This document shows, piece by piece, positions 1,493 to 27,193 of a stretch of DNA of 37,475 nt (position 1 is the first letter of the stretch; each line of letters begins with the position of its first letter). Source of the stretch: a virus; IMG/VR virus record IMGVR_UViG_3300005529_000071, positions 1 through 37,475 of that record; one strand, written 5' to 3'. A program made the position numbers and the translations under genes. The notes under the pieces are model-generated. The model had not been told where the DNA came from, searched no databases, and worked only from the letters and a program-made list of their open reading frames with translations.

Positions 1493-1975
1493 CTAGCGCC
1501 CCTCTCGCCCGGCCTTCTCGACTCGAACCTCGGCCGGCCCGACCCACACCTCGACCCGGGCGGGCTCCCCGTAGCGCTTCTCGAGGAGCTCCTCGACGAT
1601 CTGCGCGTCATCGCGGTAGACGACACCGGTCAGCGCGTCCTCGACCGCCCGCGCGAGCTTCAGCAGGTCCGGACGCGACGCCGGCAACACCGGGGCGCTC
1701 GAGAGCAACCCGTACGCGCCATAGTGCTTCTTCGGCCGCGCGACGTGGAACGTCATCGTCGCCGCGAGCGGCCCGTCGAGCAGCTCCCGCTCGCCGATCG
1801 CCTCACCGGCGACCTGCGCGACCTGCTGACGCCAAGGCGCCGAACGCCGCCCCGCCTCGCGGACCCACACACGACCCGCCGGGCCGCGACCGATCGTCTT
1901 CGACCCCGCCGGCTGCGCCGGCCCGAACACCGTGAACCGCACCCCGGTGACAGCCCGCTCGGCGACCGCGCTCAC
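1493..1975 (-). CDS. rusA: RusA-family Holliday junction resolvase
   Basis: This 160-residue protein matches the RusA endonuclease family, which cuts four-way junctions and branched DNA during phage recombination and before packaging. The signature lies at residues 101-133: RPDLLKLARAVEDAL, then VVYRDDAQIVEEL and a Lys. It corresponds to the acidic cluster (here Asp103, Asp113, Asp122/Asp123) and a following basic residue. An N-terminal FTVFGPAQPAGSK motif near residue 14 is also typical. The length fits the family (about 120-160). The start is GTG, overlapping the Ku stop as GTGA, so it is probably translated together with Ku, and the two may act in one recombination and end-processing module. 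Confidence 0.9.
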   Translation of the reverse strand: MSAVAERAVTGVRFTVFGPAQPAGSKTIGRGPAGRVWVREAGRRSAPWRQQVAQVAGEAIGERELLDGPLAATMTFHVARPKKHYGAYGLLSSAPVLPASRPDLLKLARAVEDALTGVVYRDDAQIVEELLEKRYGEPARVEVWVGPAEVRVEKAGREGR

Positions 1976-2790
1976 TTCGACCCCCGCTTCCTCGCCGCCA
2001 GCTTGAGGCTCTCCCGGAGAGCCTTCTCGAGATCGAGCGGCGACGCCCCCGGCGCCTCGACCAGGCCGCGGCCGTCGCGCACCTTCCCCTCGATCAACGC
2101 GCGGATCCGCTTCCCGTGGCCGCTCCGCAACAGCTTCGGGTTGAACTCGCGGCTCTGGCCGGCCACGAACTTCCGCGCCAGCAGCAGCTCACGCTCCGGA
2201 GCAGCCTTGAGCGCCCGTCGGATCGGCACGGTTGAGCGCACATCCGCGCTCAGAAAGAGCGTGGAGAGGCAGAGCACCCCGGCGAGCGGGTACACCGCGC
2301 ACGCGTACTCCCGGCCGTACATCACGATCGCGCCCAACCCAGCGAGCTGCTCCGACCCCAGCGCCGCGAGCAGCAGCGCGTAGGCAGCAGCGTCCCCCTC
2401 GCCCCCGCGGGGGGCGAGGTAGTAGGTGCTGTCCACGTGCAGCAGCAGCCGCTCGTCCGGGGGGACGAACCGGTCGAGCAGGATCGTCTTCGCCTCGTCG
2501 CCGCTCGCGAGGTCGGAATCCTCGATCTCCACGTAGTGTCCGGTCGCGAACTCGAACCCCTTCACGATCTCGGAGGGCTTCACCGACCGGTTGTGCCTCG
2601 AGCAGCGCTTCGGCTGCACGATCCGCGCGCCACACCCGCGGTGCAGCAGCACGAACGAGACATCCTCCCGCTGACGGGCGACCTGCACCGACACCGGCAC
2701 CGCCACCTCGCCGAACACGACCGAGCCGTTCCACAACGCGCGAGGCTGCTTCTTCTTCGCCGACCGCGCCTTCGTCGCGGCCGCGGTCAC
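1972..2790 (-). CDS. ku: Bacterial-type Ku, DNA end-binding protein of NHEJ
   Basis: The 272-residue product is a bacterial/phage Ku. Family hallmarks in order are: ALWNGSVVFGEVAVPVSVQ near residue 18, DVSFVLLHRGCGARI near 43, a basic CSRHNRSV segment, EIVKGFEFATGHYVEIEDSD near 73, ILLDRFVPPDE, a YYLAPRGG motif, YALLLAALG, the beta-barrel strand IVMYGREYACAVYPLAGVLCL, and a C-terminal helix. Ku homodimers encircle broken DNA ends and recruit LigD for non-homologous end joining. The length is near the usual 260-300, but the lysine-rich C-terminal tail of some host Ku proteins is almost missing. The GTG start overlaps the RHH gene stop. Phage Ku is known from mycobacteriophages Omega and Corndog. 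No LigD is present here, so host LigD would be needed. Confidence 0.93.
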   Translation of the reverse strand: MTAAATKARSAKKKQPRALWNGSVVFGEVAVPVSVQVARQREDVSFVLLHRGCGARIVQPKRCSRHNRSVKPSEIVKGFEFATGHYVEIEDSDLASGDEAKTILLDRFVPPDERLLLHVDSTYYLAPRGGEGDAAAYALLLAALGSEQLAGLGAIVMYGREYACAVYPLAGVLCLSTLFLSADVRSTVPIRRALKAAPERELLLARKFVAGQSREFNPKLLRSGHGKRIRALIEGKVRDGRGLVEAPGASPLDLEKALRESLKLAARKRGSK

Positions 2791-4330: not shown

Positions 4331-5299
4331 TTAGGGGATGGCGCTCCAGCTGGCGTCGTTCATCGTCTCTGCCAGGTAGAGAGAGATGAGCGGCCAGGCG
4401 CCGGCGGGCGTGTTCGGCTTGTAGTCGGGGAGCTGGTAGGGGGTGCGGCCCCAGCCGACGCCGGGGCAGAGGCTCGAGACGGGGACGCCGCCGGCGGATG
4501 AGGCTGCCGGCCAGGGGTCGCCCTCGTTCGTGTAGGTCTCGAAGATGAACGCGAGCTGGCCGGCGTTGATCCGGCTGGTCGCGTCGGCGCGCTGGGCGGC
4601 GGTCATCGAGTTCGGGTTGCCGATGATCACGTGCGCACCGGCGGCGATCGCGTCGTCGTACTCGTAGGAGGTCTCGGCTTGGAAGATCAGGTAGTCGGCG
4701 CCGACCTGGGCGCCGAAGTCGCGGATCCGCTGCGCGCCGATCTGGCTCTGGTTGCCCCAGACGGCGAGGAGGTGCCCTTGCGCCTTGATCGTGGATGCGG
4801 CCGCTCTCGCGGCCGCATCGAAGGACGGGTCGGCTGATACTGCGATCCGCCACTTGGGTGGGGCGCGCAGGGCGGCGTTCGGGTTCCAGGCGGTGAAGAT
4901 GACGTTCTGCGCGAGCGGCGCGTACGCGCTGCTCGGCGCTGGGGCGGGGATGGTGACGCTCTGCTTCGGCTCGATCTGGATGACGGCGACCGAGTACGTG
5001 TGCGGTCTCGCGTCGGGCTTGCCGAACTTGACCGAGGTGCGTGTCCCGTCGAGCGTGTGCGAGAGACGTCGGCTGTCCCGGTAGAACGCGAACCCGTCCG
5101 CAGCCGCGACCGGGTCCCAGCTGAGCGTCACCGACGCGGCCGTCTCGCCGGCGACGCGGATGCTGACCGTGGTCGAGAGGGCGCCCTGGTGGACGGAGGA
5201 GGTGACGCCGAAGGTGATCAGCCCGCCGGCGAGAACCGGCGTTGCGAGGCGCGCTAGCGGCGCGGCGAACCGGAGGAGGAGGGGTGCGAGGCGGGACAC
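4331..5299 (-). CDS. Membrane-anchored FN3 protein with C-terminal TIM-barrel-like domain
   Basis: The 322-residue product (GTG start) has an N-terminal hydrophobic stretch, about residues 13-35, that should act as a signal anchor. It is followed by a fibronectin type III-like domain (residues ~50-108: ASVTLSWDPVAAADGFAFYR, then HTYSVAVIQI). The C-terminal ~190 residues contain WRIAVSADPSFDAAAR, an internal HLLAVWGNQSQ strand, GADYLIFQAETSYEY and HVIIGNPNSM. This reads like alternating strands and helices of a barrel. It sits directly downstream of the endolysin, so a role in lysis, cell-surface binding or superinfection is plausible. No catalytic pair is clear. I cannot name the family of the C-terminal domain. 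Confidence 0.75.
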   Translation of the reverse strand: MSRLAPLLLRFAAPLARLATPVLAGGLITFGVTSSVHQGALSTTVSIRVAGETAASVTLSWDPVAAADGFAFYRDSRRLSHTLDGTRTSVKFGKPDARPHTYSVAVIQIEPKQSVTIPAPAPSSAYAPLAQNVIFTAWNPNAALRAPPKWRIAVSADPSFDAAARAAASTIKAQGHLLAVWGNQSQIGAQRIRDFGAQVGADYLIFQAETSYEYDDAIAAGAHVIIGNPNSMTAAQRADATSRINAGQLAFIFETYTNEGDPWPAASSAGGVPVSSLCPGVGWGRTPYQLPDYKPNTPAGAWPLISLYLAETMNDASWSAIP

Positions 5300-5305
5300 A
5301 CGCGT

Positions 5306-6223
5306 CTATCCGCCTGCGCAGCCGGGGACGCGGACGAAGACCATCGGCCGGCGGCCGAACGGGTGGAACCGCTCGCGGACCGCGTCCGAGGCGTTCCCCT
5401 CGAGACTGGTGATCCCGCTCTTCGAGACCCGCTCGACGAGGCCGACGTGGCCGAGCCGATCCACGAACGCGACCAGGTAGCCGGGTTTCGGCAGGGCGCG
5501 GAGCCAGCCGTGCGAGCGTGCCCAGCCGACGATGTAGAAGACGCCGGCGGAGTTGTCCGCGATCGCGCCCGACCACGCGGTCTTCGGGAACGCGAGCCGC
5601 GCGAGCTTGAGCGCCCACATCTGGAACGACGCGCACCAGGGCGCGTGGAAGGCGCCGGTGACCGCCTGGTAGACGCGTACGCGGGCGCCGTCGTTCGATC
5701 CCCACGGCTGCTCGTGGACGCCGAGCTCGCCACGCTCGAGCGCGATCAGCCGCTTCGCGCACGCCGTCGACGCCCGGTCGGCCCGGATCTGCTTGTCAGC
5801 GGCGAGCCGCGCGGTTGCGCGACGGAGGTAGCCGATCGGCCGCGCGCGCTTGCCCGTGAGGATGTCGACGACGTCGTCGCCGGCGACAGGCTTCAGCTCG
5901 TCGGCGGGCCAGCCGAGCCGACGTTTCATCTCCACGACCGCTGAGGCGGTGCGTTTCCCGAAGAGCCCGTTGGGCTTGTGCGGGAACGTCGCGATCCGGA
6001 ACTTCGACGGTCGGTGCCCGCCGAGGAGCCACTGCAGCCCGCGGACGCGTTCCCCCCGCGAGCCTTGGTGGAGCAGCCGCGGATCCACCGGTGGCGGGCT
6101 CGGCCGCGACGGGATCAGCGTGACCGACGCAGCGTGCAGGCTCGCGCGCGCCGGCACGACGCAGAGGAGGACGCTGGTTAGGAGCATCGGGAGCGCGGCG
6201 AGCCGCGCGTACGGGTGACGCAT
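5306..6223 (-). CDS. Secreted endolysin: signal peptide, PG-binding domain, CHAP domain
   Basis: A signal peptide (residues 1-27: hydrophobic core, then VVPARA cleavage-type ending) is followed by a peptidoglycan-binding type 1 domain (about 50-105: LHQGSRGERVRGLQWLLGG, then NGLFGKRTASAVVEMKRRL). The C-terminal CHAP amidase/endopeptidase domain has the catalytic Cys197 in APWCASFQMW, His259 in LGHVGLVE and the supporting EGN at 275-277. CHAP enzymes cut peptidoglycan peptide bonds. Export through the host Sec system means the holin-like genes just upstream may only trigger or time lysis. The start is ATG with GGAG ten bases upstream. Confidence 0.93.
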   Translation of the reverse strand: MRHPYARLAALPMLLTSVLLCVVPARASLHAASVTLIPSRPSPPPVDPRLLHQGSRGERVRGLQWLLGGHRPSKFRIATFPHKPNGLFGKRTASAVVEMKRRLGWPADELKPVAGDDVVDILTGKRARPIGYLRRATARLAADKQIRADRASTACAKRLIALERGELGVHEQPWGSNDGARVRVYQAVTGAFHAPWCASFQMWALKLARLAFPKTAWSGAIADNSAGVFYIVGWARSHGWLRALPKPGYLVAFVDRLGHVGLVERVSKSGITSLEGNASDAVRERFHPFGRRPMVFVRVPGCAGG

Positions 6224-13832: not shown

Positions 13833-14381
13833 CTATGCGTTGGCGACTTTGAGGGCGATCAGGAACCGGCTGCCGAAGCTCCCGGTCCCGCCTTGTGCCC
13901 GGTATTTGCAGGTGATCGTGTTCTCGTTGCCGTTCTGGAGCGTCTTCACGACGGCGGTCATGACGCTGATGTCGTGGTCGTAGCCCTGCTGGCAGGAGTC
14001 GGCGTCCTGGGCGGCGGAGCCGTTGACGCTGATCGACTGGTAGCACTGCTGCCCGGCGACGCTCGGCGAGCCGACGTACCCGTGGAGGACGAGGTAGACG
14101 CCGTCGGCGAGGCTCGTGAGCTGCGGGCCGACCGTGCCGAGATCGTTGTAGGCGGTGGACGAGGTCGACTGGCGGGCGGCGACGCTGGCGCTATTCGCGA
14201 GGAACTGGGAGAACCCGGTGATCTGCGAGATTGGAAGCAGCGGCGGGTTCGCCTCGATGTAGGCGACGAGCCAGGAGCGGAAGATCTGCGGGAGCTCGGT
14301 CGGGTCGCCGAGCAGCCGCTGGACGAGCTTCCGTTCATTCTCGGTGAGTGGGCTCGCGGAGGGGATGCTCGGGCTAGGCAC
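13833..14381 (-). CDS. Phage tail-appendage structural protein, 182 aa
   Basis: The N-terminal ~70 residues are helical (LTENERKLVQRLLGDPTELP, then QIFRSWLVAYIEANPPLLPI) and probably attach to the virion. From residue ~75 the protein is strand-rich, with LGTVGPQLTSLADGVYLVLH, VNGSAAQDADSCQQGYDHD, and a C-terminal NTITCKYRAQGGTGSFGSRF. I know this two-part layout (NPPLLPISQI... then an LTxLxDGxYLVL jelly-roll-like domain) from actinobacterial phage tail or appendage proteins. The start is GTG and overlaps the nozzle gene end by eight bases. Receptor contact is plausible but unproven. Confidence 0.7.
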   Translation of the reverse strand: MPSPSIPSASPLTENERKLVQRLLGDPTELPQIFRSWLVAYIEANPPLLPISQITGFSQFLANSASVAARQSTSSTAYNDLGTVGPQLTSLADGVYLVLHGYVGSPSVAGQQCYQSISVNGSAAQDADSCQQGYDHDISVMTAVVKTLQNGNENTITCKYRAQGGTGSFGSRFLIALKVANA

Positions 14382-15819
14382 GGCGGCTCTTCTCGAGGTC
14401 GTGCCCCTCGAGCTCGACCCCGTACAGGAGCGTCGTCGCCGACGGGCCGCTCTGGGTGACCTTGAACCCGAACCCGCCGGCGCGTTGCCGCACGGCCGCC
14501 CGCGCCCGTTTGTACCCGGTCGTCGCCCCGAAGGTGTCGTCGAGGGTTGTGTACGCGGCGCCAGCGGGGCTTGTGAGGTAGCCGATCGAGAGGGTCGGCC
14601 GGTCGGCGGCCGCGTCGGCGAGCTCGTAGCCGAGGTAGGCGTAGCGCACCCGCAGCAGCCCCTGCACCGGGGTGAACGGTGTCTCCATGATCGGCGTGAC
14701 CGCGCTGCCGTCGGCGTCCTCCTTCACCCCGGCGGCGGGGGAGAACACGCTCGAGAACGAGCAGACACGCGCGGAGGCGCGGTCACCGAAGTAGAGCTCG
14801 GCGGCGGCGCCGACCGCGGGGGCAAACGTGAGCGCGCGGATGTTCGCGAGCCGGAACCAGACACGACGGTCGAGGTCGCAGACGAGGCAGTCCTTGAACG
14901 AGGGGCCGTCGGCGATCGAGAGGACGTAGTAGCCGCGGTAGACGCCCGCGGAGAGCGTCCAGCTGCTCGTGTACCCGGAGAGGAGCGTCTGCCAGTAGTG
15001 GCTCATCCCGCCGGCCTCGGTGAGGTCGATGATCGTCGCTGCGTCGGTGAGGAACACACCGGTTTGGTTCGCCCAGATCACGAAGTCGCCGTAGGAGGCG
15101 ACCGAGCGGGCGTCGAGGCAGCCCTGGTCGAAGAGCGGCTCTAGCACCATGTCGGTGTTCGGGGGCGGGGTGGCGCCGCGGATCCGCTCGGTGCGGCCGT
15201 CCGACCAGACGAGCACCGCGGAGCGGAGCGCGGCGATCGCGCGGATCGGCGCGGACACGTCGATGTACCCGGCCGCCGGCCACGACTGCGGGTCGCCGGG
15301 CCCGGAGAAGCTCAACCGTTGCGGCTCCGCGTTCGTGTTCCCGAGCAGCGTCCGGTCCTTGTAGACGGCGGCGTACTGGGCGGCCGGCGGTGACCCGCCG
15401 AGGGTGGTGAGCGTGGAGCCGTCGTAGCTCTTCGGCGTGGAGACACCGTCGCCGGCGGGGATGATCAGCCGGTTGCGGTGGAAGACGGGCACCTGCAGCG
15501 GCGCGACCGCGGCACCGATGTGCGAAGCGCTCGACGGTGAGGCGACCGTGTACAGCTCGCCGTCCTCGTCGAGCGCGCAGAGCTTCGCCCCGGCCTCGAA
15601 CGGCGCGTGGGCGACCGCCTGTACGTAGCTGGCTGAGGGGTGGACGGTGGCGAGGTCGGGGGAGGCGTACTCCCAGCCGCCGCGTTTCGCGAGCGGGCCG
15701 CCGAACTGGGGCAGGTAGTCGACGAGGTTCCAGGCGGCGCCGGCGACCATCTGCTCGCGAGGCTCGTCTTGGCGCATCCCACGGTTGAACTGGAACGCGA
15801 GCGGGCGCGGCTGGGCCAC
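14374..15819 (-). CDS. Tail nozzle / tail tubular B-like protein
   Basis: The 481-residue protein starts (GTG) with QFNRGMRQDEPREQMVAGAA, then NLVDYLPQFGGPLAKRGGWE, the opening I associate with podovirus nozzle or tail-hub proteins. The middle is a chain of short strands with repeated patterns (KLCALDEDGELYTV; NRLIIPAGDGVSTPKSYDGS; SFSGPGDPQSWPAAGYIDV; SAVLVWSDGRTERI; DFVIWANQTGVFL). This fits a beta-propeller-like domain. It lies downstream of the adaptor and fibre genes and before internal proteins, as in many short-tailed phages. The assignment rests on motif layout and context, not on a computed match. Confidence 0.75.
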   Translation of the reverse strand: MAQPRPLAFQFNRGMRQDEPREQMVAGAAWNLVDYLPQFGGPLAKRGGWEYASPDLATVHPSASYVQAVAHAPFEAGAKLCALDEDGELYTVASPSSASHIGAAVAPLQVPVFHRNRLIIPAGDGVSTPKSYDGSTLTTLGGSPPAAQYAAVYKDRTLLGNTNAEPQRLSFSGPGDPQSWPAAGYIDVSAPIRAIAALRSAVLVWSDGRTERIRGATPPPNTDMVLEPLFDQGCLDARSVASYGDFVIWANQTGVFLTDAATIIDLTEAGGMSHYWQTLLSGYTSSWTLSAGVYRGYYVLSIADGPSFKDCLVCDLDRRVWFRLANIRALTFAPAVGAAAELYFGDRASARVCSFSSVFSPAAGVKEDADGSAVTPIMETPFTPVQGLLRVRYAYLGYELADAAADRPTLSIGYLTSPAGAAYTTLDDTFGATTGYKRARAAVRQRAGGFGFKVTQSGPSATTLLYGVELEGHDLEKSRRA

Positions 15820-15838: not shown

Positions 15839-16717
15839 CTAGAGGGTGGTTTCGTCGCGGAGCGTGAGCGAGCCGCCGCCTTCTTCCTCGAGGAGGAGCG
15901 GCTGCCGGCGGCGGAGACTCCCGAAGAAGCGGAGCGACCCGCCGAGCATCTTCATCGCCTGCTTTGTGAGCGCCCCCGTCGGGGTGATCGCGCCCGATAG
16001 TGGGAGCGGGATCACGTTCGAGCCGTGTCCGGCGAGAACGACGCCGTGGCCTTGCTCGGTCGGTGTCCAGAGCGGGACGCTCGCGGCGGTCACCGTTGTC
16101 CCCGCGATCGCGGACTGGTTGGAGCCGTTTCCGCTTAGATCTGGGATTGCTTGGGTGACGGCGGCCTGATCGAGGACGAGCAGCGCTTTCGGTTGGCCCG
16201 GGGTGAGCCAGGGGCCGATCCCGAACGGGAGCGACTCGACCTGGGCGTCGGTGAGCGCCACGTCCCACTCGGCGAGCACCCCGATGTCGCCGGCGTAGAA
16301 CCCGGTGTGGTCGATGTCGCAGCCGATCTTCGCCTCGGTGATGGGGACGCTCGAGTTCGCGATCGCGCTCCCGCTGTCCTGGTGCGTCCAGGTGTTCGCG
16401 GCGATGTCGTAGAAGTGGAAGCGCGGCGCGACCGACCCGGAGGCCTTCGTGACCGCGACGAGGTACCACCTGGCGGTCGCGACCGTCGCGGCGCTGTCGG
16501 CGGTGTTCCCGTCGCACGCGAGCCGGAGCACGCCGGTGCTCATCACGCTGAACCGGTGGCGTGCGCCGCTCGAGACGCCGACGCTGAACAGGTGCCTGTT
16601 TGAGGCGAGCGACGACACCCGGAGGAGCGCGGCGATCGTGCCTGGGCCGAACGCGAACCCGAGCGCGCCGAGGCGGAGCGTGATCTTGTCGCTGGTGCCG
16701 TTGAACGTCCGCGCCAC
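15839..16717 (-). CDS. LamG/concanavalin A-like tail fibre protein (copy 1)
   Basis: The 292-residue product (GTG start) begins ARTFNGTSDKITLRLGAL. It has LamG-like features: FGPGTIAALLRVSSL, GVLRLACDGN, WYLVAVTKASGSVAPRFHFY, GDIGVLAEWDVALTDAQVES, then LLVLDQAAVTQAIPDLSGNG. These jelly-roll domains usually bind carbohydrate or build fibres. The C-terminal ~50 residues are basic and Ala/Thr/Leu-rich. The protein at 21374-22114 starts with the same motif, so the two are paralogues. The gene follows 18 bases after the 16736-17257 gene, the same order as in the other copy. Confidence 0.8.
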   Translation of the reverse strand: MARTFNGTSDKITLRLGALGFAFGPGTIAALLRVSSLASNRHLFSVGVSSGARHRFSVMSTGVLRLACDGNTADSAATVATARWYLVAVTKASGSVAPRFHFYDIAANTWTHQDSGSAIANSSVPITEAKIGCDIDHTGFYAGDIGVLAEWDVALTDAQVESLPFGIGPWLTPGQPKALLVLDQAAVTQAIPDLSGNGSNQSAIAGTTVTAASVPLWTPTEQGHGVVLAGHGSNVIPLPLSGAITPTGALTKQAMKMLGGSLRFFGSLRRRQPLLLEEEGGGSLTLRDETTL

Positions 16718-17986: not shown

Positions 17987-18667
17987 CTAGATGTCTTGGG
18001 AGGGGACGGTCGGGAAGCGGCCGCGCCGGCCGACCCGGGCGGGGCTCATCGTCCGAGCGCCACGGTGGCGCAACGCCCGGCGGATCTTCCTGCACTCCGC
18101 CTCGAACAGCTTCCTGTAGCCGTCCCCCTGGTCCTTGGCGCGGTTCTCGTCGTAGTCGGCGCCCTCGGCGAGCATCCAGTACTCGATCGCCTTGTGATGC
18201 TCCGCCGGGATCCCGCCGAAGTCCGGCTGGGAAGGGTCGTCGCCGCCGCTCTCGAGCGCGGTCGGGCGGGGGACGTGGTAGAGGGTGAGCGTGTCCGCGG
18301 CGGCCGGGGTCGGCCAGACCATCAGCAGGTTGGCGCCGTCGACGGCGTACCGGTAGACGCTCGAGGGGGCGGAGGCGCTCGCCCTGCGCAGGTCGTAGAT
18401 CGCCTCCGGGCTGACCCGCTCAAGCGGCTCGCCGCTCGCGTTGATCACCTTGTTGATCGCGATGATCCCGGTCGGGAGCTCGTAGTCCTTCACGCCGGCG
18501 ATCAGCGACACGGTCGCGAGCGTGACCCGGCAGTGCGTCGCGAGCAGGATCTGCAGCACCGCCTCGGACGCCCACCCGTCCATCAGCAGCTGCTCGTCGC
18601 TACCGTCGGTGTTGTCCAACCCGAGCTTGCCGCTGACGACGCGGCGGAGATCAGCGAGAGTCGCCAC
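17987..18667 (-). CDS. Head-tail adaptor-like protein (podovirus gatekeeper/adaptor)
   Basis: The 226-residue product is mostly helical at the N-terminus (TLADLRRVVSGKLGL, EQLLMDGWASEAVLQILLAT). It has a strand region typical of phage adaptors (VSLIAGVKDYELPTGIIAIN, SVYRYAVDGANLLMVWPTP, LTLYHVPRPTAL) and a helical end (HHKAIEYWMLAEGADYDENR, RKLFEAECRKIRRAL). The mix of an ELP...I.I strand, a W.TP strand and a final helix bearing E, D and R residues is what I know from podovirus adaptors that bind beneath the portal. The GTG start directly abuts the stop of the preceding small gene. Confidence 0.75.
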   Translation of the reverse strand: MATLADLRRVVSGKLGLDNTDGSDEQLLMDGWASEAVLQILLATHCRVTLATVSLIAGVKDYELPTGIIAINKVINASGEPLERVSPEAIYDLRRASASAPSSVYRYAVDGANLLMVWPTPAAADTLTLYHVPRPTALESGGDDPSQPDFGGIPAEHHKAIEYWMLAEGADYDENRAKDQGDGYRKLFEAECRKIRRALRHRGARTMSPARVGRRGRFPTVPSQDI

Positions 18668-19169: not shown

Positions 19170-20915
19170 TCAGATCGAGATGCCGCCGACGCGTTCGCCG
19201 ATCGTGACGCTGCGCATCAGCCGCGAATAGGTCGCCGCCGCTGCGCGCGCGGCCGGGTTGCTGCCGTCGGTTGGCATTGACGTGTACAAGCCGTCGGAAC
19301 CGGCGGACCAGTCAGGCCAGTCGATGAATGATGGGATGCCGAGGCCGCGCCACCGGTCACGCCACCTGAGCGCCGCCACCCTCGTCTTCGTGTCTTGGTC
19401 GGCCTGCGATACGGAGGCGTTCCAGCCGATCTCTGTGATCCACAACTCGGCTGTGCCGAACCCGAGCTCGCCCAACACGTCGATCGCGACGAGGGTGTCG
19501 TTGTAGGCATTCGACGAGTTCGAGTTGTCGTCCGGGCCAGCGCCACTCGAGGGGTAGGGGTGGATTCCGAACCTCGTGAACCCGGCGAGGTCTCCGGTGC
19601 CGAAAGCGGTGCGCCAGAACGTCTCCCCGGCGATGTCGCCGCCGCCGGGCGCAGACCATGAGTTGATGCCGCCGGTGACGATGATCCCGGCCGGGTCTGC
19701 CGCAGGGATGGTTGTGCCGCCGACGTTCTTGCAGTACCTGGCCCACTGAGTGGCGTCTGGCCCAGCGGCGCCGTTCTGCGTCTTCCACTCCGATTGGGAG
19801 TTAGGCTCGTTCCACAGCTCGTAGATCGGGGAGAGGCCGTTGGGGTTGCCGGCGCCGCCGGCCTTGTATCGGGCGGCGAGCGCGCCGATCGCGGTCTGCT
19901 GTAACCCGAGCCAGGTGTTGAAGGCCGAGTCGATCCCGGTGCCGGGGACGGCGAACCGGCCGGCGCTCGAGTTCATGTACGCGGCGGAGCCGTGGAGGAG
20001 CAGCCAGACGCGGATGCCTTTGGTGGCGCAGTCGGCGAAGACCGTATCGAGGCGAGCGAAGTCGTAGGTGCCGCTTCCGGTGTTCCACTGGTCGACGAGC
20101 GCGTCGGTGCGGGTGACGTTTCCGCCATCTCGGAGAAGGACGCGTGTCTGGTTCGCGCGGATCCCGGCGTCTGCCTGGTCGTCGAGGTTCGTGTGCGTCC
20201 CGATGTAGAAGCTGCGCGTGGGGACCGGGGTGACGTTCTCCGCGTTGAACGCCGCCTCGATCGTCTGGCAGTTCGCGTTCGAGAGGTAGGACGGCCACCA
20301 GGCGGTGTACTGGAGGACGAACCGGCCGAAGTTGTCACCGATCGTCGGCTGCGGCGCCCCGGAGAACGTGTACGCCTGGTTCGTCCACAGCACAGGGGTG
20401 GCGTCGACGCCGTCGATACGGATCGACCCGGCGGTGAGGTTGTTGACGCGGCAGATGACGAGATGCCAGAGGTGGGTGTCGCCGATATCGACGGTCGCGG
20501 CGTTCCCGAGGCCACCCCAACGGAGCGCGATCGTCGGCCGGTACGACTGGCCGGCGCCCGCTTCGAACCGGACCGCGGGCGTGTCAAAGACGCCATTCGT
20601 GTCCGCACACCAAACCGCCCCGCCAGGGTCTTCGAACCCCCAGCAACGGACGACGCAGACGTGCGTCCACGTATTCGAGTTCCACACCGCCCCCGCCAGT
20701 GGGAGAGCGAGGCAGCTCGAGCCTGCGCCCGGACACCGGTAGGCGGTGCCGGTTGTGCGGTCGTTCCCGAGCCCGAACGCCTTGAGTTTCGCGTTCGCCT
20801 GGTAGCTGCCGTGCCTGGCGTTCCCGGAGGAGTCCGTCATCGTCGCGAGCGCCGAGTCTGCGTGCTTGTAGAGCGCCGCCGGGGACAGCGCCTGAAGTGC
20901 GGAAAGAAGCGACAT
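19170..20915 (-). CDS. Tail protein with LamG-like N-terminus and clan GH-A glycoside hydrolase
   Basis: The 581-residue product has an N-terminal LamG-like domain (about 10-230: ALYKHADSALATMTDSSGNA, NTWTHVCVV, HLWHLVICRVNNLTAGSIRI). A TIM-barrel glycosidase follows (about 235-575). Catalytic signatures of clan GH-A are visible: Glu370 in IYELWNEPN (acid/base) and Glu495 in LWITEIGWNAS (nucleophile), about 125 residues apart, with IHPYP at 451-455 between. These belong to GH5/GH39-like enzymes that cut beta-linked sugar polymers. In a phage tail this would degrade capsule, teichoic acid-type glycan or other surface polysaccharide. The start is ATG directly after the TAG of the 153-aa gene. 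Confidence 0.88.
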   Translation of the reverse strand: MSLLSALQALSPAALYKHADSALATMTDSSGNARHGSYQANAKLKAFGLGNDRTTGTAYRCPGAGSSCLALPLAGAVWNSNTWTHVCVVRCWGFEDPGGAVWCADTNGVFDTPAVRFEAGAGQSYRPTIALRWGGLGNAATVDIGDTHLWHLVICRVNNLTAGSIRIDGVDATPVLWTNQAYTFSGAPQPTIGDNFGRFVLQYTAWWPSYLSNANCQTIEAAFNAENVTPVPTRSFYIGTHTNLDDQADAGIRANQTRVLLRDGGNVTRTDALVDQWNTGSGTYDFARLDTVFADCATKGIRVWLLLHGSAAYMNSSAGRFAVPGTGIDSAFNTWLGLQQTAIGALAARYKAGGAGNPNGLSPIYELWNEPNSQSEWKTQNGAAGPDATQWARYCKNVGGTTIPAADPAGIIVTGGINSWSAPGGGDIAGETFWRTAFGTGDLAGFTRFGIHPYPSSGAGPDDNSNSSNAYNDTLVAIDVLGELGFGTAELWITEIGWNASVSQADQDTKTRVAALRWRDRWRGLGIPSFIDWPDWSAGSDGLYTSMPTDGSNPAARAAAATYSRLMRSVTIGERVGGISI

Positions 20916-21377
20916 CTAGCTGTAGCGGTAGGCGATGATCACGACGAGGTCGGCCCCGGGGATCGTTGATCCGACCTGGTCGACGTCGACGGTGAGGTAG
21001 TCGCCCACAGCGAGGGAGGTGATGTCCGGTACGGCCGTGGAGCTCGCGAACGAAGACGCTGGGATTGTCGGGCGGTTGCCCTGGGTCGAGAAGATCGTCG
21101 TGCCGTTCTTGTTCACGTCGACGATCACTGAGGCTCCGGTGGGGGCGGTGCTGACAGCGGCGGTCACGCCGACGATCGTGGCGGCGGCGGGAAGCGTGAA
21201 CCTTCCCTTGCCGGTGTCAACCGCGAGCGTGCCGGCGCGCGAGAAGGGCGCCAGGAACGCCCCCTTAAGTGTGCCGTCCGGGTTGAACGCGACCTTCAGG
21301 AATCCACCGGAGGATTCCGGGGTGCCGAGGATCTCGTCCCAGTTCTCTTCGTCGGAGCGGGGGAGCCGTTCGGTCAC
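20916..21377 (-). CDS. Phage fibre domain protein, 153 aa
   Basis: The GTG start overlaps the LamG gene stop (GTGA). After an acidic leader (SDEENWDEILGTPESSGGFL) comes a beta-rich domain: GRFTLPAAATIVGVTAAVST, APTGASVIVDVNKNGTTIFS, TQGNRPTIPASSF, then GDYLTVDVDQVGSTIPGADL and a final IIAYRYS. The PTG.S.IVDVNKNGTTIF...GDYLTVDVDQVG module is widespread at the ends of phage fibres, where it forms trimeric tips. The gene lies between the LamG and glycosidase proteins, so it probably belongs to the same receptor-binding apparatus. Confidence 0.8.
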   Translation of the reverse strand: MTERLPRSDEENWDEILGTPESSGGFLKVAFNPDGTLKGAFLAPFSRAGTLAVDTGKGRFTLPAAATIVGVTAAVSTAPTGASVIVDVNKNGTTIFSTQGNRPTIPASSFASSTAVPDITSLAVGDYLTVDVDQVGSTIPGADLVVIIAYRYS

Positions 21378-22114
21378 CGCTCATCTCCGGTCAGCGCGAG
21401 CAACTCGTAGGCGAGCGGCGCGACGTTCTGCTGCGCGATCGCGGCGGCGACCGCCGCGGCGTCGGCGGCCTGGTCGAGAAAGATCGACGGTGGCAGCAGC
21501 GGCCAGGCGACTGGCGGCCCAGGGACGACGGAGGTGCCTGTGACGGTGCCATTGAGCTTGCGCCCGGAGTAGTCCGGCTCGGGCGAGTCCACACCGAAGA
21601 GCGGCCAGAATCCGATTAGCCCGCGCGGTGTGAAACCGTACCGCATCGCCTCGAGGATCTCCGCCTGGGTGAGAACGACGTTGTGGAGCGCGACGTAGGA
21701 GATGTGACTCGCCCCGGAGCTCTGCGTGCCGTCGGTCTTGTTGCCGATCCCGAAGGTGCAGGATGTCGTGGTCACGGCGCCCGATGGTGACCACGCCCCG
21801 CCGGCGACCGGCGTCCCGTTCCCGTAGAAGGTCGGAACGGCGCTGGTCCCGTCGTGCGTCCAGGCCATGTGGTTCAGGTTCGCGAGCGTCAGTCCGTGTG
21901 TTGCTGCGGAGCCGACGCTTCCCCCTGCAAAGTTCCGGTCGAAGATGATCGAGCCGGAGCCGTTGTGGTAGGTGCGGAGGAAGGAGATCTGGAAGTCCCA
22001 GATGATCCCGAACGACCCCGGGTTCTTGCACCACCAGAGGATCGAGATCGTCGCTGGCAGGTTCAGCGACGGTGTGACGACGCGGTCGGTTCCGCCCGTG
22101 AAGCTGCGAGCCAA
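21374..22114 (-). CDS. LamG-like tail fibre protein (copy 2), TTG start
   Basis: I start at TTG 22114-22112, one base after the upstream TGA, because the sequence then reads (M)ARSFTGGTDRVV and lines up with the GTG start of its paralogue (ARTFNGTSDKIT). LamG features follow: ATISILWWCKNPGSFG, TYHNGSGSIIFDR, LNHMAWTHDGTSAVPTFYGN, SHISYVALHNVVLTQAEILE, and GLIGFWPLFGVDSPEPDYSG. The C-terminus is Ala-rich and helical (DQAADAAAVAAAIAQQN). The product has 246 residues. It probably binds glycan or forms a fibre, like the copy at 15839-16717. Confidence 0.82.
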   Translation of the reverse strand: MARSFTGGTDRVVTPSLNLPATISILWWCKNPGSFGIIWDFQISFLRTYHNGSGSIIFDRNFAGGSVGSAATHGLTLANLNHMAWTHDGTSAVPTFYGNGTPVAGGAWSPSGAVTTTSCTFGIGNKTDGTQSSGASHISYVALHNVVLTQAEILEAMRYGFTPRGLIGFWPLFGVDSPEPDYSGRKLNGTVTGTSVVPGPPVAWPLLPPSIFLDQAADAAAVAAAIAQQNVAPLAYELLALTGDER

Positions 22115-22115
22115 C

Positions 22116-22595
22116 TCAGGTGCTCGTGTACTCGAACACGCACTGGAAGAGCAGCGTGTCCACGGCAAGCGTGTCGTTCGCGTGCGCGCCGTTGTGCGTG
22201 ATCTTGACGATCAGGTCTTTCCCTGCCGCCGGGGTCGTCGAGAGGGTGAAGGTGACGTCAGTCGGTCGGTAGGCGGTCGTGGACAGGGTGATGTCCTGCG
22301 CCGTCTCCGCGGTCAACGCCGCGGCGTCCCACCCCGCCGATGCGTCGCGGACGACGGTTGCGACGAGCATCCTCGAGACCTGCCCTGCGGTGGAGTTCGC
22401 GCCGATTCGACAGACGATCTTTCCGCCGGACGCGTAGTTCTGGGGGACGCGGACGATGCCCCACCAGTCGCCGTCGACATCCTTCACGAACGCCGGCACC
22501 AGCATGCGCACGTTCGTGCCGGCGACGAGCGCGGGGTAGCCGTTGCCGGAGGCGTCGGGGACGGCAAGCGGGACGGGAACCTGCACGGTCGCCAT
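22116..22595 (-). CDS. Beta-rich fibre accessory protein (copy 2)
   Basis: The 159-residue protein (ATG 22595) is nearly all strand: VRMLVPAFVKDVDGDWWGIV, VPQNYASGGKIVCRIGANST, ITLSTTAYRPTDVTFTLSTT, then KDLIVKITHNGAHANDTLAV and the end LLFQCVFEYTST. The WW, P-x-NYASGG and EYTS elements match the gene at 16736-17257. A perfect 12-bp palindrome (CTCCTCGAGGAG, 22606-22617) covers its GGAG Shine-Dalgarno, which could fold into a small hairpin and lower translation. The stop is one base before the TTG of the LamG gene. Confidence 0.8.
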   Translation of the reverse strand: MATVQVPVPLAVPDASGNGYPALVAGTNVRMLVPAFVKDVDGDWWGIVRVPQNYASGGKIVCRIGANSTAGQVSRMLVATVVRDASAGWDAAALTAETAQDITLSTTAYRPTDVTFTLSTTPAAGKDLIVKITHNGAHANDTLAVDTLLFQCVFEYTST

Positions 22596-23002: not shown

Positions 23003-23347
23003 TCAGTCCGGGGGAAGCCAGACGCCTTGGCCGCGGAGCTCGTCGCGCAGCTCCTCGTCGGTGCGGGTCGGCCAGAGCTCCTCGTCGCCGCGGTACTCGA
23101 ACTCGAGCTGGGCGAGCTGGTCGCGTCGCATCGGGTAGCGGCAGTAGGGCTCGACGCAGCGGTCGGGGAACGGCTCCGGCTGGGGGAAGTGGTGACAGGC
23201 GAGGCAGCGGTAGCCGGTGCGGTACTGCTCGAACGTCTCGGGGGAGACGGTGATGTTGATGCCGCGGGCAAGCCGGCTGTTGACCGCGTACAGCTCGTCT
23301 GTTGGGCGGACTACGGCTTCTGGCATTCCGTGGTCGCGGTCAGCCAT
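23003..23347 (-). CDS. Zinc-ribbon-like small protein, 114 aa
   Basis: The ATG 23347-23345 has a strong GGAGG six bases upstream, inside the 3' end of the glycosyltransferase gene (eight-base overlap). The protein has two Cys pairs, CLACHHF and DRCVEPYC, spaced like a zinc ribbon. Ahead of them lies LARGINITVSPETFEQYRTG. The C-terminus is acidic (LEFEYRGDEELWPTRTDEEL, ending QGVWLPPD). Its position directly after the glycosyltransferase suggests a partner, but no function is known. The in-frame extension to 23440 is antisense-like and rejected. Confidence 0.75.
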   Translation of the reverse strand: MADRDHGMPEAVVRPTDELYAVNSRLARGINITVSPETFEQYRTGYRCLACHHFPQPEPFPDRCVEPYCRYPMRRDQLAQLEFEYRGDEELWPTRTDEELRDELRGQGVWLPPD

Positions 23348-24986
23348 TGATCGCCTCCTGCCAGTGGTGGATCTGCGCCGCGGTTGTCCGCTCGGCGAGC
23401 ACGTACTCGCGCGCCGCAGCGGCGAGCTGGCGCGCCTCATCCGGGTGGCGGACGAGATGCTCGATCGCGCGGCGGAACTCCTTCGCGCCGCCGGCTTTCA
23501 GGCAGGTCTCGCCGTGCGTCCAGGTCTTGTACGGGGCGACGTCGGAGAGGACGGGGGTGCAGAGGCCCATCGCGTACTCGAGCGCCTTGACGTCGCTGCG
23601 GCCGAGCGCGAACGGGTGGTGCTTGATCGGCGCGACGCCGATGTCGAAGAACCGGAACGATTCCCGGTAGGCGTCGAGGTCGTCGAGCCAGGGAAGGTAG
23701 CCGTGCGGGAACCGCCAGCCCGGGTTGAAGCCGGCCGCGTACACCTGCACGCCCGGCTGGCGCGCCGCCCACTCGAACGCTGGTGTGACGAGCGGCGCGT
23801 CGGCCTGGTGGGAGAGCGAGGCGAACCAGACGATCCGCAGGATCCCGTCCTCCGGCTTCTCCGGCTCCGGCCAGTCCTGCGGGTCGACGGTGTTTGGGCA
23901 GACGTGAACGTTCGGGTTCAGCTCGCGGTACTGGTTCGCGAGCACCTCGGTGGTGACGATCACCCCGTCGGCGTCTTTCACGATCGCGGCGTGCCCTTGG
24001 ACGCTGTTCGCCTGCTCGCCGATCCGCTTTCCCCACTGGGCGCGCTCGCGGATCCCGCGGCCCGGGTCGACGAGGTAGTTGTCGTCGGACTCGACGAGGA
24101 CGCGGATCCCTTTCTCGCGCATCAGCAGCGCCATCAGCGCCCGCTCTTTGTCCGCGGCGAGCTGCAGAACGGCGGCCTTGCCGAAGTGCTCCGGGAACGC
24201 GAACTTGGTGTCGTTGTGGGCGACCGCGATCCCGGCGCGAACAACACCGGGCAGATGCCGCGCGGGAAGCTGGCAGCGGAGGTAGGTCGTTGCTGGCGTC
24301 GCCGCGTTGTAGAACGTCGCCTGCACCTCGTCGAGCGGGTCCGGGCCGACACGGCGGAACCGGGAGGAGAACCCGAAGCCTTTCCCGCGCACGATCCGGT
24401 CGCGATAGTCGGCGAGAATCTCCGGGGTTTTCACCTGGTCGTTGCGGGAGCCAGCGCGGAACCGGTAGAGCAGCTGCGCCTCCGGGCACGGTTTGAACCT
24501 GCAGCCGGCGCGGTGCATGCGCACCCAGAGATCCCAGTCCTCGAGCGCGTCCATCCGCCGGAACCCGCCGACGGCGAGCGCCTGCTCGCGGCGGATCAGC
24601 GACGCCGCCGGGATGTAGTTGTTCTCCTGCAGGCGGAGTCCGCAGAAGGCTTCCGCGGCGGAGAACCCGAGCTGCTCGTCGAGCGTCTCGTTGAGGATCC
24701 GCATCGACGGGTAGACGACGTCGGCGTTCCAGGCGGGGCCGAGCAGGTAGTCGATGAACATGGGTGCGACGAGATCGTCGGAGCCGAACGGCAACACGAA
24801 CTCCGTTTCCGCCTGGGCGAGTCCGCGGTTGAGCGCACCAGAGACGTCGCCGCGGTTCTCGAGTACGAGCTTCGGCGCCTCCTCGGGGAGCGAGCCGATC
24901 GCCTGGGCGAGCCACTCCCGGTTTCCCTTCCTCCGGTGGATCGGGATCAGGACGGTGACGTCGCTGATCTCGAGGCGTCTGCTCAT
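23340..24986 (-). CDS. Two-domain glycosyltransferase (GT2-like plus GT-B-like)
   Basis: The 548-residue protein begins SDVTVLIPIHRRKGN, the N-terminal strand of GT-A family 2 enzymes. It has the nucleotide-sugar motif GSDDL (Ser69-Asp70-Asp71) and the acceptor motif ALEDWDLWVRM (Glu149-Asp150). From about residue 235 a second, GT-B-like domain follows: GVVRAGIAVAH, GVIVTTEVLANQYRELNPNV, ILRIVWFASLSHQ, and DVKALEYAMGLCTPVLSDVA with Glu470 in the family-4-type position. Start ATG 24986 overlaps the upstream stop (ATGA). Placed among virion genes, it probably decorates capsid or fibre proteins with sugars; modification of host surface sugars is the alternative. Confidence 0.88.
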   Translation of the reverse strand: MSRRLEISDVTVLIPIHRRKGNREWLAQAIGSLPEEAPKLVLENRGDVSGALNRGLAQAETEFVLPFGSDDLVAPMFIDYLLGPAWNADVVYPSMRILNETLDEQLGFSAAEAFCGLRLQENNYIPAASLIRREQALAVGGFRRMDALEDWDLWVRMHRAGCRFKPCPEAQLLYRFRAGSRNDQVKTPEILADYRDRIVRGKGFGFSSRFRRVGPDPLDEVQATFYNAATPATTYLRCQLPARHLPGVVRAGIAVAHNDTKFAFPEHFGKAAVLQLAADKERALMALLMREKGIRVLVESDDNYLVDPGRGIRERAQWGKRIGEQANSVQGHAAIVKDADGVIVTTEVLANQYRELNPNVHVCPNTVDPQDWPEPEKPEDGILRIVWFASLSHQADAPLVTPAFEWAARQPGVQVYAAGFNPGWRFPHGYLPWLDDLDAYRESFRFFDIGVAPIKHHPFALGRSDVKALEYAMGLCTPVLSDVAPYKTWTHGETCLKAGGAKEFRRAIEHLVRHPDEARQLAAAAREYVLAERTTAAQIHHWQEAING

Positions 24987-25318
24987 CCGGCGACGGCGAC
25001 GTACGCGTCGTCGGTGAGCTCGGCGGGCACGATCCGCACCTGCACGCGGCCGTCTCCTTGGACGCGTCCGTCGTCCTCGAGCGACGCGTGGTACTGGTGA
25101 CCGTCGAGGGTGCAGCCGTTCGCGAGCACCCAGAGCGCCTCGCGCGGGTCGAGCGCGATCACGGCGATCCCGTGGCGTTCCGGGCGGAGCCGCCACACCG
25201 GGCGCACGTAGTCGGCGGGGATCCCGTCCTGCCGGTCCGCGACCGGCGGGTGCCACGTCTCGGAGAGCCTCAGCTGGTAGTAGTGGCAGCCCTCGTCGTG
25301 GCAGATCGGGCAGGTCAC
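24983..25318 (-). CDS. Small protein with N-terminal CPICHDEGC zinc motif
   Basis: The GTG start overlaps the upstream gene (GTGA), and the stop overlaps the glycosyltransferase start (ATGA). Residues 3-11 read CPICHDEGC, followed by a His, which could form one zinc site. The rest is strand-rich: ETWHPPVADRQDGIPADYVR, ERHGIAVIALDPREALWVLA, a DGHQYHASLEDDGRV segment and VRIVPAELTDDAYVAVAG. Tight coupling suggests that it works with, or is made in step with, the glycosyltransferase. The family is unknown. Confidence 0.75.
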   Translation of the reverse strand: MTCPICHDEGCHYYQLRLSETWHPPVADRQDGIPADYVRPVWRLRPERHGIAVIALDPREALWVLANGCTLDGHQYHASLEDDGRVQGDGRVQVRIVPAELTDDAYVAVAG

Positions 25319-25902
25319 GCCTCGACCAGCTCCTCCTCCACCAGGTGGTCGAGCTCGGCTTCGTCGACCGCCTCACCGGTGGTGAGCGGCTGCAGCGCCG
25401 CGATCACGGATTTGCGGGCGCGGTTTTCGAGCTCGTAGGCGAGGATCGCCGCCGCGTCGTAGCCGTCCTCCTCGACCCTGGTGAGGATCTTCTCGATCAC
25501 CTGCTTGTTGGTCAGCCCGCCCTTGGTCGCGACGAGCTCGTCGTACTTCGGCCACGGCGGCGTGAGCCGCGGCAGCTCGATCAGCACCGCCGCGTGGTGG
25601 TTGAGCAGCTTCTCCTCGATCGCCTGCCGCTCCTCGTCGCTCCACTCCATCTGCTTCTGATCCTCGATCGAGTCGTAGAACGCGACCCACTGGCCGGGTT
25701 CGACGCCCTGCTGAATCCTCCGGAACTCGAACCGCTTTTCGGCGATCTCGCGGGCGTGCGCGGGAGCGGTGCCGCGCTTGAACTTCGCGAACACTCGCCG
25801 GCGGGCGGGCGCCACCATCCGGCCGGCGGTGTCGTAGAGCGCCGGCGTCTCGTTCCGAACGACGACGTGAATCGGGTCTTCAGCGATGAACTGCACCTGC
25901 AT
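25315..25902 (-). CDS. Hypothetical protein downstream of the capsid gene, 195 aa
   Basis: A strong Shine-Dalgarno (AAAGGAGTGG then ATG) lies just downstream of the capsid-gene hairpin. The N-terminal half is strand-rich (QVQFIAEDPIHVVVRNETPA, RRRVFAKFKRGTAPAHAREI). A Trp-containing segment (GVEPGQWVAFYDSIEDQKQM) leads to helices, including NKQVIEKILTRVEEDGYDAA, and an acidic C-terminus (DEAELDHLVEEELVEA). Capsid-proximal position makes a head completion or decoration role thinkable, but no family is recognised. The end overlaps the next gene as GTGA. Confidence 0.7.
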   Translation of the reverse strand: MQVQFIAEDPIHVVVRNETPALYDTAGRMVAPARRRVFAKFKRGTAPAHAREIAEKRFEFRRIQQGVEPGQWVAFYDSIEDQKQMEWSDEERQAIEEKLLNHHAAVLIELPRLTPPWPKYDELVATKGGLTNKQVIEKILTRVEEDGYDAAAILAYELENRARKSVIAALQPLTTGEAVDEAELDHLVEEELVEA

Positions 25903-25990: not shown

Positions 25991-27193
25991 CTAGCCGGTG
26001 ACCCCGCGCAGGATCGCGTGGGTCTTCTCGGCCTTGCACACCAGCGTGACCTCGGAGAGGTACTCCTCCGCGGTCTCGTCGGCGTCGTTGGCCTGACGCT
26101 TCGGGTACAGCGCCGCGAACCGCGGCCCCTGCGACGTCGCCGGCGCCTTCTTCAGCGCCACGTTCGTCATGTCGACGAGGTAGGCGCGAGAGCCGAGCTG
26201 CTTCGCCGTCCCCTCGCCGAACCGCTTCCAGTCGTTCTTCACGATCACCGGGATCCGGGCGCCGTGAACCGCCGAGATGACGGCGTCGACGCTCACACCC
26301 CAGACGGTCGTCTCGTGCGCGGACTCGGTGCGCACCCAGTTGTCCTGGAGGAACTCCGAGAGCACCTGGGCGACGATCGGACTGGCGAAAAGCACCTTGC
26401 GGTTGCGCTCGCCGTACTCGAGGCCGGAGCGGAGGAAGTCGTTCCACGCTCCCTTGTCGAGCGTCCCGCCGACGTCGGTGATGTTCGTCGAGATGTACTC
26501 GTCGAGCCCGCCGAACGTGCAGCGGGGCGCGTTCGTGCCGGCGGTGTACGAGCGGGCGCCGAAGAAAAGCTGGTCTTCGATGTCGCGCTTGTGCTCGATC
26601 GCGATCTTCCGCCGGTGGTAAGTGAGCGGGTTACCCGAGTACCACGTCTGCCACTCCGCCGTCGAGGTGAAGCGGTAGGCGTTGCGGATGATCTGCATAT
26701 AGTTCAGGTTGCTGGTCTTCTGCGTGACGATCGCCGTCGGCAGCGTCCCACCCTGCTCGTTCGAGCCGGCGAGGATGACGATCCCGCCCTGGCCGGTGCC
26801 GGAGGCGGCGGTTGCTGCGGAGACGGAACCGATCGCGCGGACGACCGTCCACGCCGAGGCGGCGACGGCGGTGATCCGGAACGCCTCGCCCGTCTGGACG
26901 AACTTCCCGGTGTCGCCGACCTTGGCGTAGGTGCCCTCGTTCGCGGTGACCGCGAGGTTCGTGTCACCCGCGGCGGCGGTGGCGGAGAGCGCCGTGTTGC
27001 GGGGGAGGAACACGTCCTCCTCCCACTGCTCCTGGAAGCTCTTCGCCGTCTCGACGGGGAGCTTCATCAGCATCGTTGCGAACTGCGAGGTGTCGCGATC
27101 GACGTTTGCCACCTGGCTGTCCATCGACACTGCGAGGTCGACGGCGAGCGGGTCGTCGGTCGCGACGAGGTCACGGTTGGTCGTGACCGCCAT
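25991..27193 (-). CDS. Major capsid protein, SU10/DUF5309-type HK97 fold
   Basis: The 400-residue product contains WEEDVFLPRNTALSATAAAG, a TYAKVGDTGKFVQTGEAFRI beta-loop, VVRAIGSVSAA, then NYMQIIRNAYRFTSTAEWQT and a KIAIEHKRDIEDQLFFGARS helix, ending with a domain (PVIVKNDWKRFGEG, KAEKTHAIL). This order (D.LLPR..L, V.TGE..RVTAV, NY.QI.R, EH.RDIE..FFG) matches the SU10 major capsid family (DUF5309). The start is ATG with GGAG upstream. It follows the scaffold gene and precedes a hairpin, consistent with high expression. Confidence 0.9.
   Translation of the reverse strand: MAVTTNRDLVATDDPLAVDLAVSMDSQVANVDRDTSQFATMLMKLPVETAKSFQEQWEEDVFLPRNTALSATAAAGDTNLAVTANEGTYAKVGDTGKFVQTGEAFRITAVAASAWTVVRAIGSVSAATAASGTGQGGIVILAGSNEQGGTLPTAIVTQKTSNLNYMQIIRNAYRFTSTAEWQTWYSGNPLTYHRRKIAIEHKRDIEDQLFFGARSYTAGTNAPRCTFGGLDEYISTNITDVGGTLDKGAWNDFLRSGLEYGERNRKVLFASPIVAQVLSEFLQDNWVRTESAHETTVWGVSVDAVISAVHGARIPVIVKNDWKRFGEGTAKQLGSRAYLVDMTNVALKKAPATSQGPRFAALYPKRQANDADETAEEYLSEVTLVCKAEKTHAILRGVTG

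What the first reader, a model, noticed from the sequence alone, without database searches (positions are those of the whole stretch)
19170..20915. LamG-plus-GH-A tail enzyme as a host-surface depolymerase
Seen: catalytic Glu370 (LWNEPN) and Glu495 (TEIGW) of a clan GH-A barrel fused behind a LamG-like domain, in a cluster of fibre genes. Known: tail-associated glycosidases digest capsule or wall polymers, but GH5/GH39-like barrels are much rarer in phage tails than beta-helix depolymerases. Inference: the phage opens a specific host exopolysaccharide or wall glycan.
Basis: partly seen in the sequence, partly recalled or inferred. Interest (0 to 1): 0.6.

Follow-up and report, generated by a model that had tools for sequence, protein, structure and literature searches.

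The report
Phage tail-region sugar-cutting enzyme
An uncultured virus of bacteria carries, among its virion genes, a probable sugar-chain-cutting enzyme that most likely digests the host's surface coat; this is an uncommon but already known kind of phage tool.

Summary
The ORF lies on the minus strand (20915 to 19170, 581 aa). Residues ~236-570 are modelled as a (beta/alpha)8 barrel, the two Glu at the ends of strands 4 and 7. A profile of the window and five phage relatives has PslG and GH39-type xylosidases as its 13 best PDB rows. The two Glu align with PslG's acid/base Glu165 and nucleophile Glu276. The Pfam GH39 model does not match, so I call it GH39-like, clan GH-A.

The LamG half is weak: PF13385 does not match this N-terminus, and no model of it is confident. 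Two neighbouring ORFs are LamG-like.

The gene sits in the structural module. Homologues lie beside tail genes in other phages; cultured Caulobacter phage Cr30 has one, listed in a review as a phage xylanase.

Best explanation: a virion-associated endo-beta-glycanase that opens a host surface polysaccharide. Host, substrate and virion attachment are not shown. A counter-signal: Cr30 is still impeded by its host's exopolysaccharide. New member of a known kind.

The parts
19170..20915 (-). GH39-like clan GH-A gene, 581 aa, ATG at 20915; starts right after the stop codon of the upstream ORF
19203..20210 (-). (beta/alpha)8 barrel, residues about 236-571
   Evidence: model, 65 matches
19806..19808 (-). 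codon of Glu370, putative acid/base (aligns with PslG Glu165)
   Evidence: position; alignment; role in PslG
19431..19433 (-). codon of Glu495, putative nucleophile (aligns with PslG Glu276)
   Evidence: position; alignment; role in PslG
20208..20915 (-). N-terminal region 1-236, possible LamG-like beta-sandwich, unproven
20916..21377 (-). 153-aa protein with tail-fibre / minor-tail-like C-terminal domain, immediately upstream
   Evidence: phrog_27064 9.3e-15, phrog_2952 minor tail 0.0023; S-CRM01 tail fibre, 46% over 90 aa
21374..22168 (-). LamG-like protein, overlaps the next ORF by 4 bases; true start uncertain
   Evidence: E 1.5e-9 to home-made LamG profile
15839..16717 (-). LamG_3 (PF13385) protein in the same module
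   Evidence: 6.4e-10, over cut-off
17987..18667 (-). phrog_399 structural protein, downstream
   Evidence: 4.9e-12
14374..15819 (-). phrog_511 internal virion protein-like
   Evidence: 2.6e-14
25991..27193 (-). major head protein
   Evidence: phrog_1328, 6.2e-16
23340..25376 (-). two-domain glycosyltransferase inside the structural module; start uncertain
   Evidence: phrog_7162, 3.3e-26

Best explanation
The gene makes a virion-associated, GH39-like (PslG-like) retaining endo-beta-glycanase. The N-terminal region, or the fibre-like protein encoded just upstream, would fix it to the tail. The barrel would cut a beta-linked polysaccharide of the host surface (capsule, exopolysaccharide or wall glycan) by the two-Glu double-displacement mechanism, with E370 as acid/base and E495 as nucleophile, so that the virion reaches its receptor. 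Shown here by computation: barrel, catalytic pair, place in the structural module, tail-side homologues. Inferred: activity, retaining chemistry, substrate, virion attachment, role in entry.
For: Barrel model with Glu at strands 4 and 7; Foldseek best match PslG; VIA best GH39 2bfg Z 25.6 and PslG Z 25.1 (GH1 enzymes within 1 Z); profile of the window and five phage relatives: 13 best PDB rows all PslG or GH39-type; both Glu align with PslG's, whose roles are in PMC11912335 (passages). Gene sits between capsid and internal virion protein genes and directly behind a fibre-like ORF. Tail genes flank homologues in L003 (collar, baseplate, sheath), L004 and L007. Cr30, found without motif patterns, has both Glu and passes Pfam's GH39 cut-off. 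Functional precedent: S6 gp095.
Against: No activity, host or virion data. PF01229 does not match the window protein. No virion-anchoring domain identified. Cr30 carries the cultured homologue yet EPS-producing Caulobacter adsorb fewer phage and survive better (PMC5749776 passages), so such an enzyme need not open the host's EPS. In Cr30 the gene pair is not next to annotated tail genes.
Confidence: 0.62

Rival explanations
1. A soluble enzyme released at lysis (not virion-bound) that frees progeny from the host's extracellular matrix, working like PslG itself, which acts on the Psl matrix polysaccharide.
For: Closest solved relative is a matrix-active endoglycosidase; no anchor domain found; a CHAP endolysin lies elsewhere, so wall lysis is separate.
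Against: Gene sits in the structural module and directly behind a fibre-like ORF; phage relatives L003/L004/L007 are flanked by tail genes.
Confidence: 0.14
2. An auxiliary metabolic gene that helps the host degrade environmental plant or algal polysaccharide, as argued for a viral GH39 from trench sediments.
For: That reading is in print for a viral GH39 (PMC8725595 passages); bacterial relatives are mostly from Chloroflexota genomes.
Against: No other metabolic gene was recognised beside it; location in the structural module.
Confidence: 0.07
3. A catalytically spent lectin-like receptor-binding domain that keeps the barrel only to bind glycan.
For: Long branch (3.43) in the tree, so much has diverged.
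Against: Both Glu, WNEP and the H452/Y454 positions are kept, although the 36 other rows were picked with patterns mostly over the two Glu motifs; Cr30, not so picked, also keeps both Glu.
Confidence: 0.09
4. Part of a surface-glycan remodelling set with the phage glycosyltransferase, changing or removing the receptor.
For: Glycosyltransferase at 23340-25376; glycosyltransferases beside the L007 homologue and an Acyl_transf_3 gene beside the L004 homologue.
Against: No functional link shown; the neighbours of the L002, L003, L008 and Cr30 homologues were not all tested for this.
Confidence: 0.06

Closest known systems
PslG of Pseudomonas aeruginosa (GH39 endo-beta-glucanase, PDB 5bx9/4zn2/9g17)
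   Same: Best profile and Foldseek match; barrel and both catalytic Glu align.
   Different: A bacterial biofilm-matrix enzyme, not a phage protein; 16-18% identity.
Caulobacter phage Cr30 gp072 'beta-1,4 xylanase'
   Same: Phage GH39-like enzyme with both Glu; preceded by a beta-rich ORF that abuts it; listed in a review as a phage xylanase.
   Different: No N-terminal extension; T4-like myophage; no direct BLAST match to the window protein at 1e-5.
Erwinia phage S6 gp095 (GH5 endoglucanase)
   Same: Podophage clan GH-A enzyme with an N-terminal non-catalytic part and two catalytic Glu (passages).
   Different: GH5; N-terminal choice-of-anchor D domains; activity on a carboxymethylcellulose-type substrate is measured there.
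IMG/VR phage homologues L003, L004, L007
   Same: GH39-like enzyme beside tail genes.
   Different: About 400 aa without the window's N-terminal region; upstream partner is another family (phrog_16458).
Beta-helix and propeller tail depolymerases
   Same: Proposed role.
   Different: Other folds; TIM barrels were 10 of 984 in DepoScope.

Membership tests
Clan GH-A (4/7 superfamily) | (beta/alpha)8 barrel | tested here: met
Clan GH-A (4/7 superfamily) | Catalytic Glu at the ends of strands 4 and 7 | tested here: met
Clan GH-A (4/7 superfamily) | Retaining hydrolysis | not testable with these tools
   needs enzyme assay
GH39 | Closer to GH39 members than to other GH-A families by profile | tested here: met
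   13 best rows are PslG or xylosidase entries (several labelled GH39; 4ekj, 4m29 and 6uqj are GH39 from recall); cannot separate GH39 from GH1 by fold
GH39 | Match to Pfam PF01229 | tested here: not met
   so it is called GH39-like, not filed as GH39
GH5 | PF00150 above gathering score | tested here: not met
   22.2 bits against 23.5
LamG-containing protein | PF13385 match in residues 1-236 | tested here: not met
LamG-containing protein | Concanavalin-like beta-sandwich | tested here: inconclusive
   models with pLDDT mostly under 50; weak profile signal
Phage polysaccharide depolymerase | Encoded in the structural/tail module | tested here: met
Phage polysaccharide depolymerase | Present in the virion and degrades a host surface polymer | not testable with these tools
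   needs mass spectrometry and assay

The most novel reading that the evidence does not exclude
Phages with tail-side GH39-like enzymes pair them with their own surface-glycan-modifying genes (glycosyltransferase here and in L007, acyltransferase in L004): one enzyme clears the coat on entry, the others re-dress the infected cell so that sister virions no longer bind or cut it.
Probability: 0.06. Interest if true: 0.6.

Novelty: new member of a known kind. Interest (0 to 1): 0.32.

Why it matters
Barrel-type depolymerases were left out of the training of a current predictor for want of examples (10 of 984; PMC11326577 passage). This sequence, the five IMG/VR homologues and Cr30 show a recurrent GH39-like lineage in phages, and they give concrete enzymes to test. 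If active, such enzymes would be PslG-like tools against exopolysaccharide matrices.

Tried and rejected
tRNA-Gln called at 20548-20620 lies inside this reading frame, has a G.G mismatch in its acceptor stem and is taken as a false call.

No phage relative by tblastn with the whole protein at 1e-5 or with its N-terminus at E 1, nor by pattern scan of IMG/VR with the N-terminus. Portal pattern scan found nothing; capsid scan found one distant contig, L057, which shares no other protein with the window at 1e-3 in the 19.4 kb held. Host therefore left open.

GH1, GH5 and GH10 enzymes also score highly by fold, so the family call rests on profiles, not on fold. Profile A2 holds 31 of the 48 bacterial loci, 5 viral loci and the window. 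All loci were picked with peptide patterns, mostly over WNEP and TEIG, so their keeping both Glu is partly circular; Cr30 is the exception.

The tree (36 rows beside the window, 30 of the 48 bacterial loci) did not place the window domain: branch 3.43, and the tool warned of long-branch attraction with L002. No claim of origin is made.

The first LamG profile wrongly included reverse-strand translations; it was rebuilt with 32 correctly read domains and the first result dropped. The N-terminal model alone (pLDDT 33) was not searched against structures.

Paper searches for a phage GH39 or barrel-type tail depolymerase; no paper describing this fusion was seen in the listings, in an open-licence library only. 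For all papers cited I saw passages (and search listings), not whole texts.

Full report
What is there. The ORF given as 19170-20915 is real but lies on the minus strand; the plus-strand reading has stops. It encodes 581 aa, starts with ATG at 20915 immediately after the stop codon of ORF 20916-21377, and has the G+C pattern of a coding frame (0.58, 0.57, 0.88 at codon positions 1-3). The record is an uncultured-virus contig of 37475 bases, 69.5% G+C and without exact terminal repeats of 10-199 bases.

Barrel and catalytic pair. E370 and E495 are as stated. AlphaFold2 on an alignment of 37 sequences gives a barrel at about 236-570, with E370 after strand 4 and E495 on strand 7. Foldseek's first three chains are PslG. 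VIA gives GH39 xylosidase 2bfg Z 25.6 (rmsd 3.3, 306 aligned) and PslG 9g17 Z 25.1 (rmsd 3.6, 306 aligned), but a GH1 enzyme reaches 25.0, so fold alone does not name the family. Sequence profiles do: with only the window and five phage relatives, the 13 best PDB rows are PslG and entries of GH39 type, PslG at 1.6e-24, and the first other row is at 1.2e-7. The alignment puts the two Glu motifs opposite chain positions 139 and 250 of PslG; with an offset of 26, my count, these are Glu165 and Glu276, the acid/base and nucleophile named in PMC11912335 (passages read). The single sequence passes no Pfam cut-off.

N-terminus. A LamG domain is plausible but unproven. PF13385 finds ORF 15839-16717 in this record and not this ORF. 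A profile from 32 LamG domains gives ORF 21374-22168 E 1.5e-9, ORF 15839-16717 E 2.7e-6 and this N-terminus E 6.5e-4, the last with an 18-column profile alignment. The motif DSSGNARHGSY near residue 28 looks like the start of LamG_3 domains (recalled, not tested). None of the five IMG/VR homologues nor Cr30 has such an N-terminal part.

Surroundings. On the minus strand run terminase, portal, capsid, a glycosyltransferase, several small ORFs, a LamG-like ORF, a fibre-like ORF, the enzyme, a phrog_399 structural protein and a phrog_511 internal virion protein. This is the structural module of what is probably a podovirus (inference; no sheath or tail-tube match among the ORFs scanned, and one weak major-tail match, phrog_7440 at 0.0098 for ORF 4331-5299).

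Relatives. Pattern scans of IMG/VR found five distinct contigs (L005 and L006 repeat L002 and L003). L003 has collar-fibre, baseplate and sheath genes nearby, L004 and L007 tail-fibre genes, L002 portal and capsid; L008's neighbours were not typed by PHROGs. In L003, L004 and L007 the enzyme follows a related beta-rich ORF (43-68% identity), and Cr30 gp071 shares 36-37% over about 120 residues with the L007 partner. Cr30 gp072 is annotated beta-1,4 xylanase, passes PF01229 and is cited as a phage xylanase in a 2017 review (passage of PMC5380687). Of 48 bacterial loci most are MAGs of Chloroflexota.

How it most likely works. The virion carries the enzyme; the barrel hydrolyses a beta-linked surface glycan by retaining chemistry; the path to the cell is opened. 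The barrel, the pair of Glu and the module are computed results; the rest is inference. Against a simple version stands Cr30: its host's EPS still lowers adsorption and killing (PMC5749776 passages). Its enzyme may act on another glycan, or not at entry.

Known or new. Barrel depolymerases are scarce, 10 of 984 (PMC11326577 passage), but S6 gp095 has measured activity on a carboxymethylcellulose-type substrate and cellulose serves that phage as first receptor (PMC9544554 passages). I file this as a new, diverged, GH39-like member of a known kind with an extra N-terminal region of unproven fold.

Noticed in passing
window 1972-2790 (-): Ku-family protein (PF02735, E 2.1e-27) next to a RusA resolvase (1493-1975, E 4.6e-15): a phage with a DNA end-joining protein.
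   Followed up: no
window 23340-25376 (-): Two-domain glycosyltransferase within the structural module; tblastn matches in 137 phage records, all under 60% identity; the rows shown match its C-terminal half.
   Followed up: partly
window 5306-6223 (-): CHAP-domain endolysin or tail lysozyme.
   Followed up: no
L004 9128-10261 and L007 2732-4627: Surface-glycan-modifying genes (Acyl_transf_3; glycosyltransferases) beside the GH39-like gene.
   Followed up: partly
L003 148-927, L004 6883-7842, L007 4990-5835, L098 6057-6968: A beta-rich ORF of unknown function just upstream of the enzyme in all four: a probable two-gene cassette.
   Followed up: partly
window 20548-20620 (-): ARAGORN tRNA-Gln call inside the enzyme gene, probably false.
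   Followed up: partly
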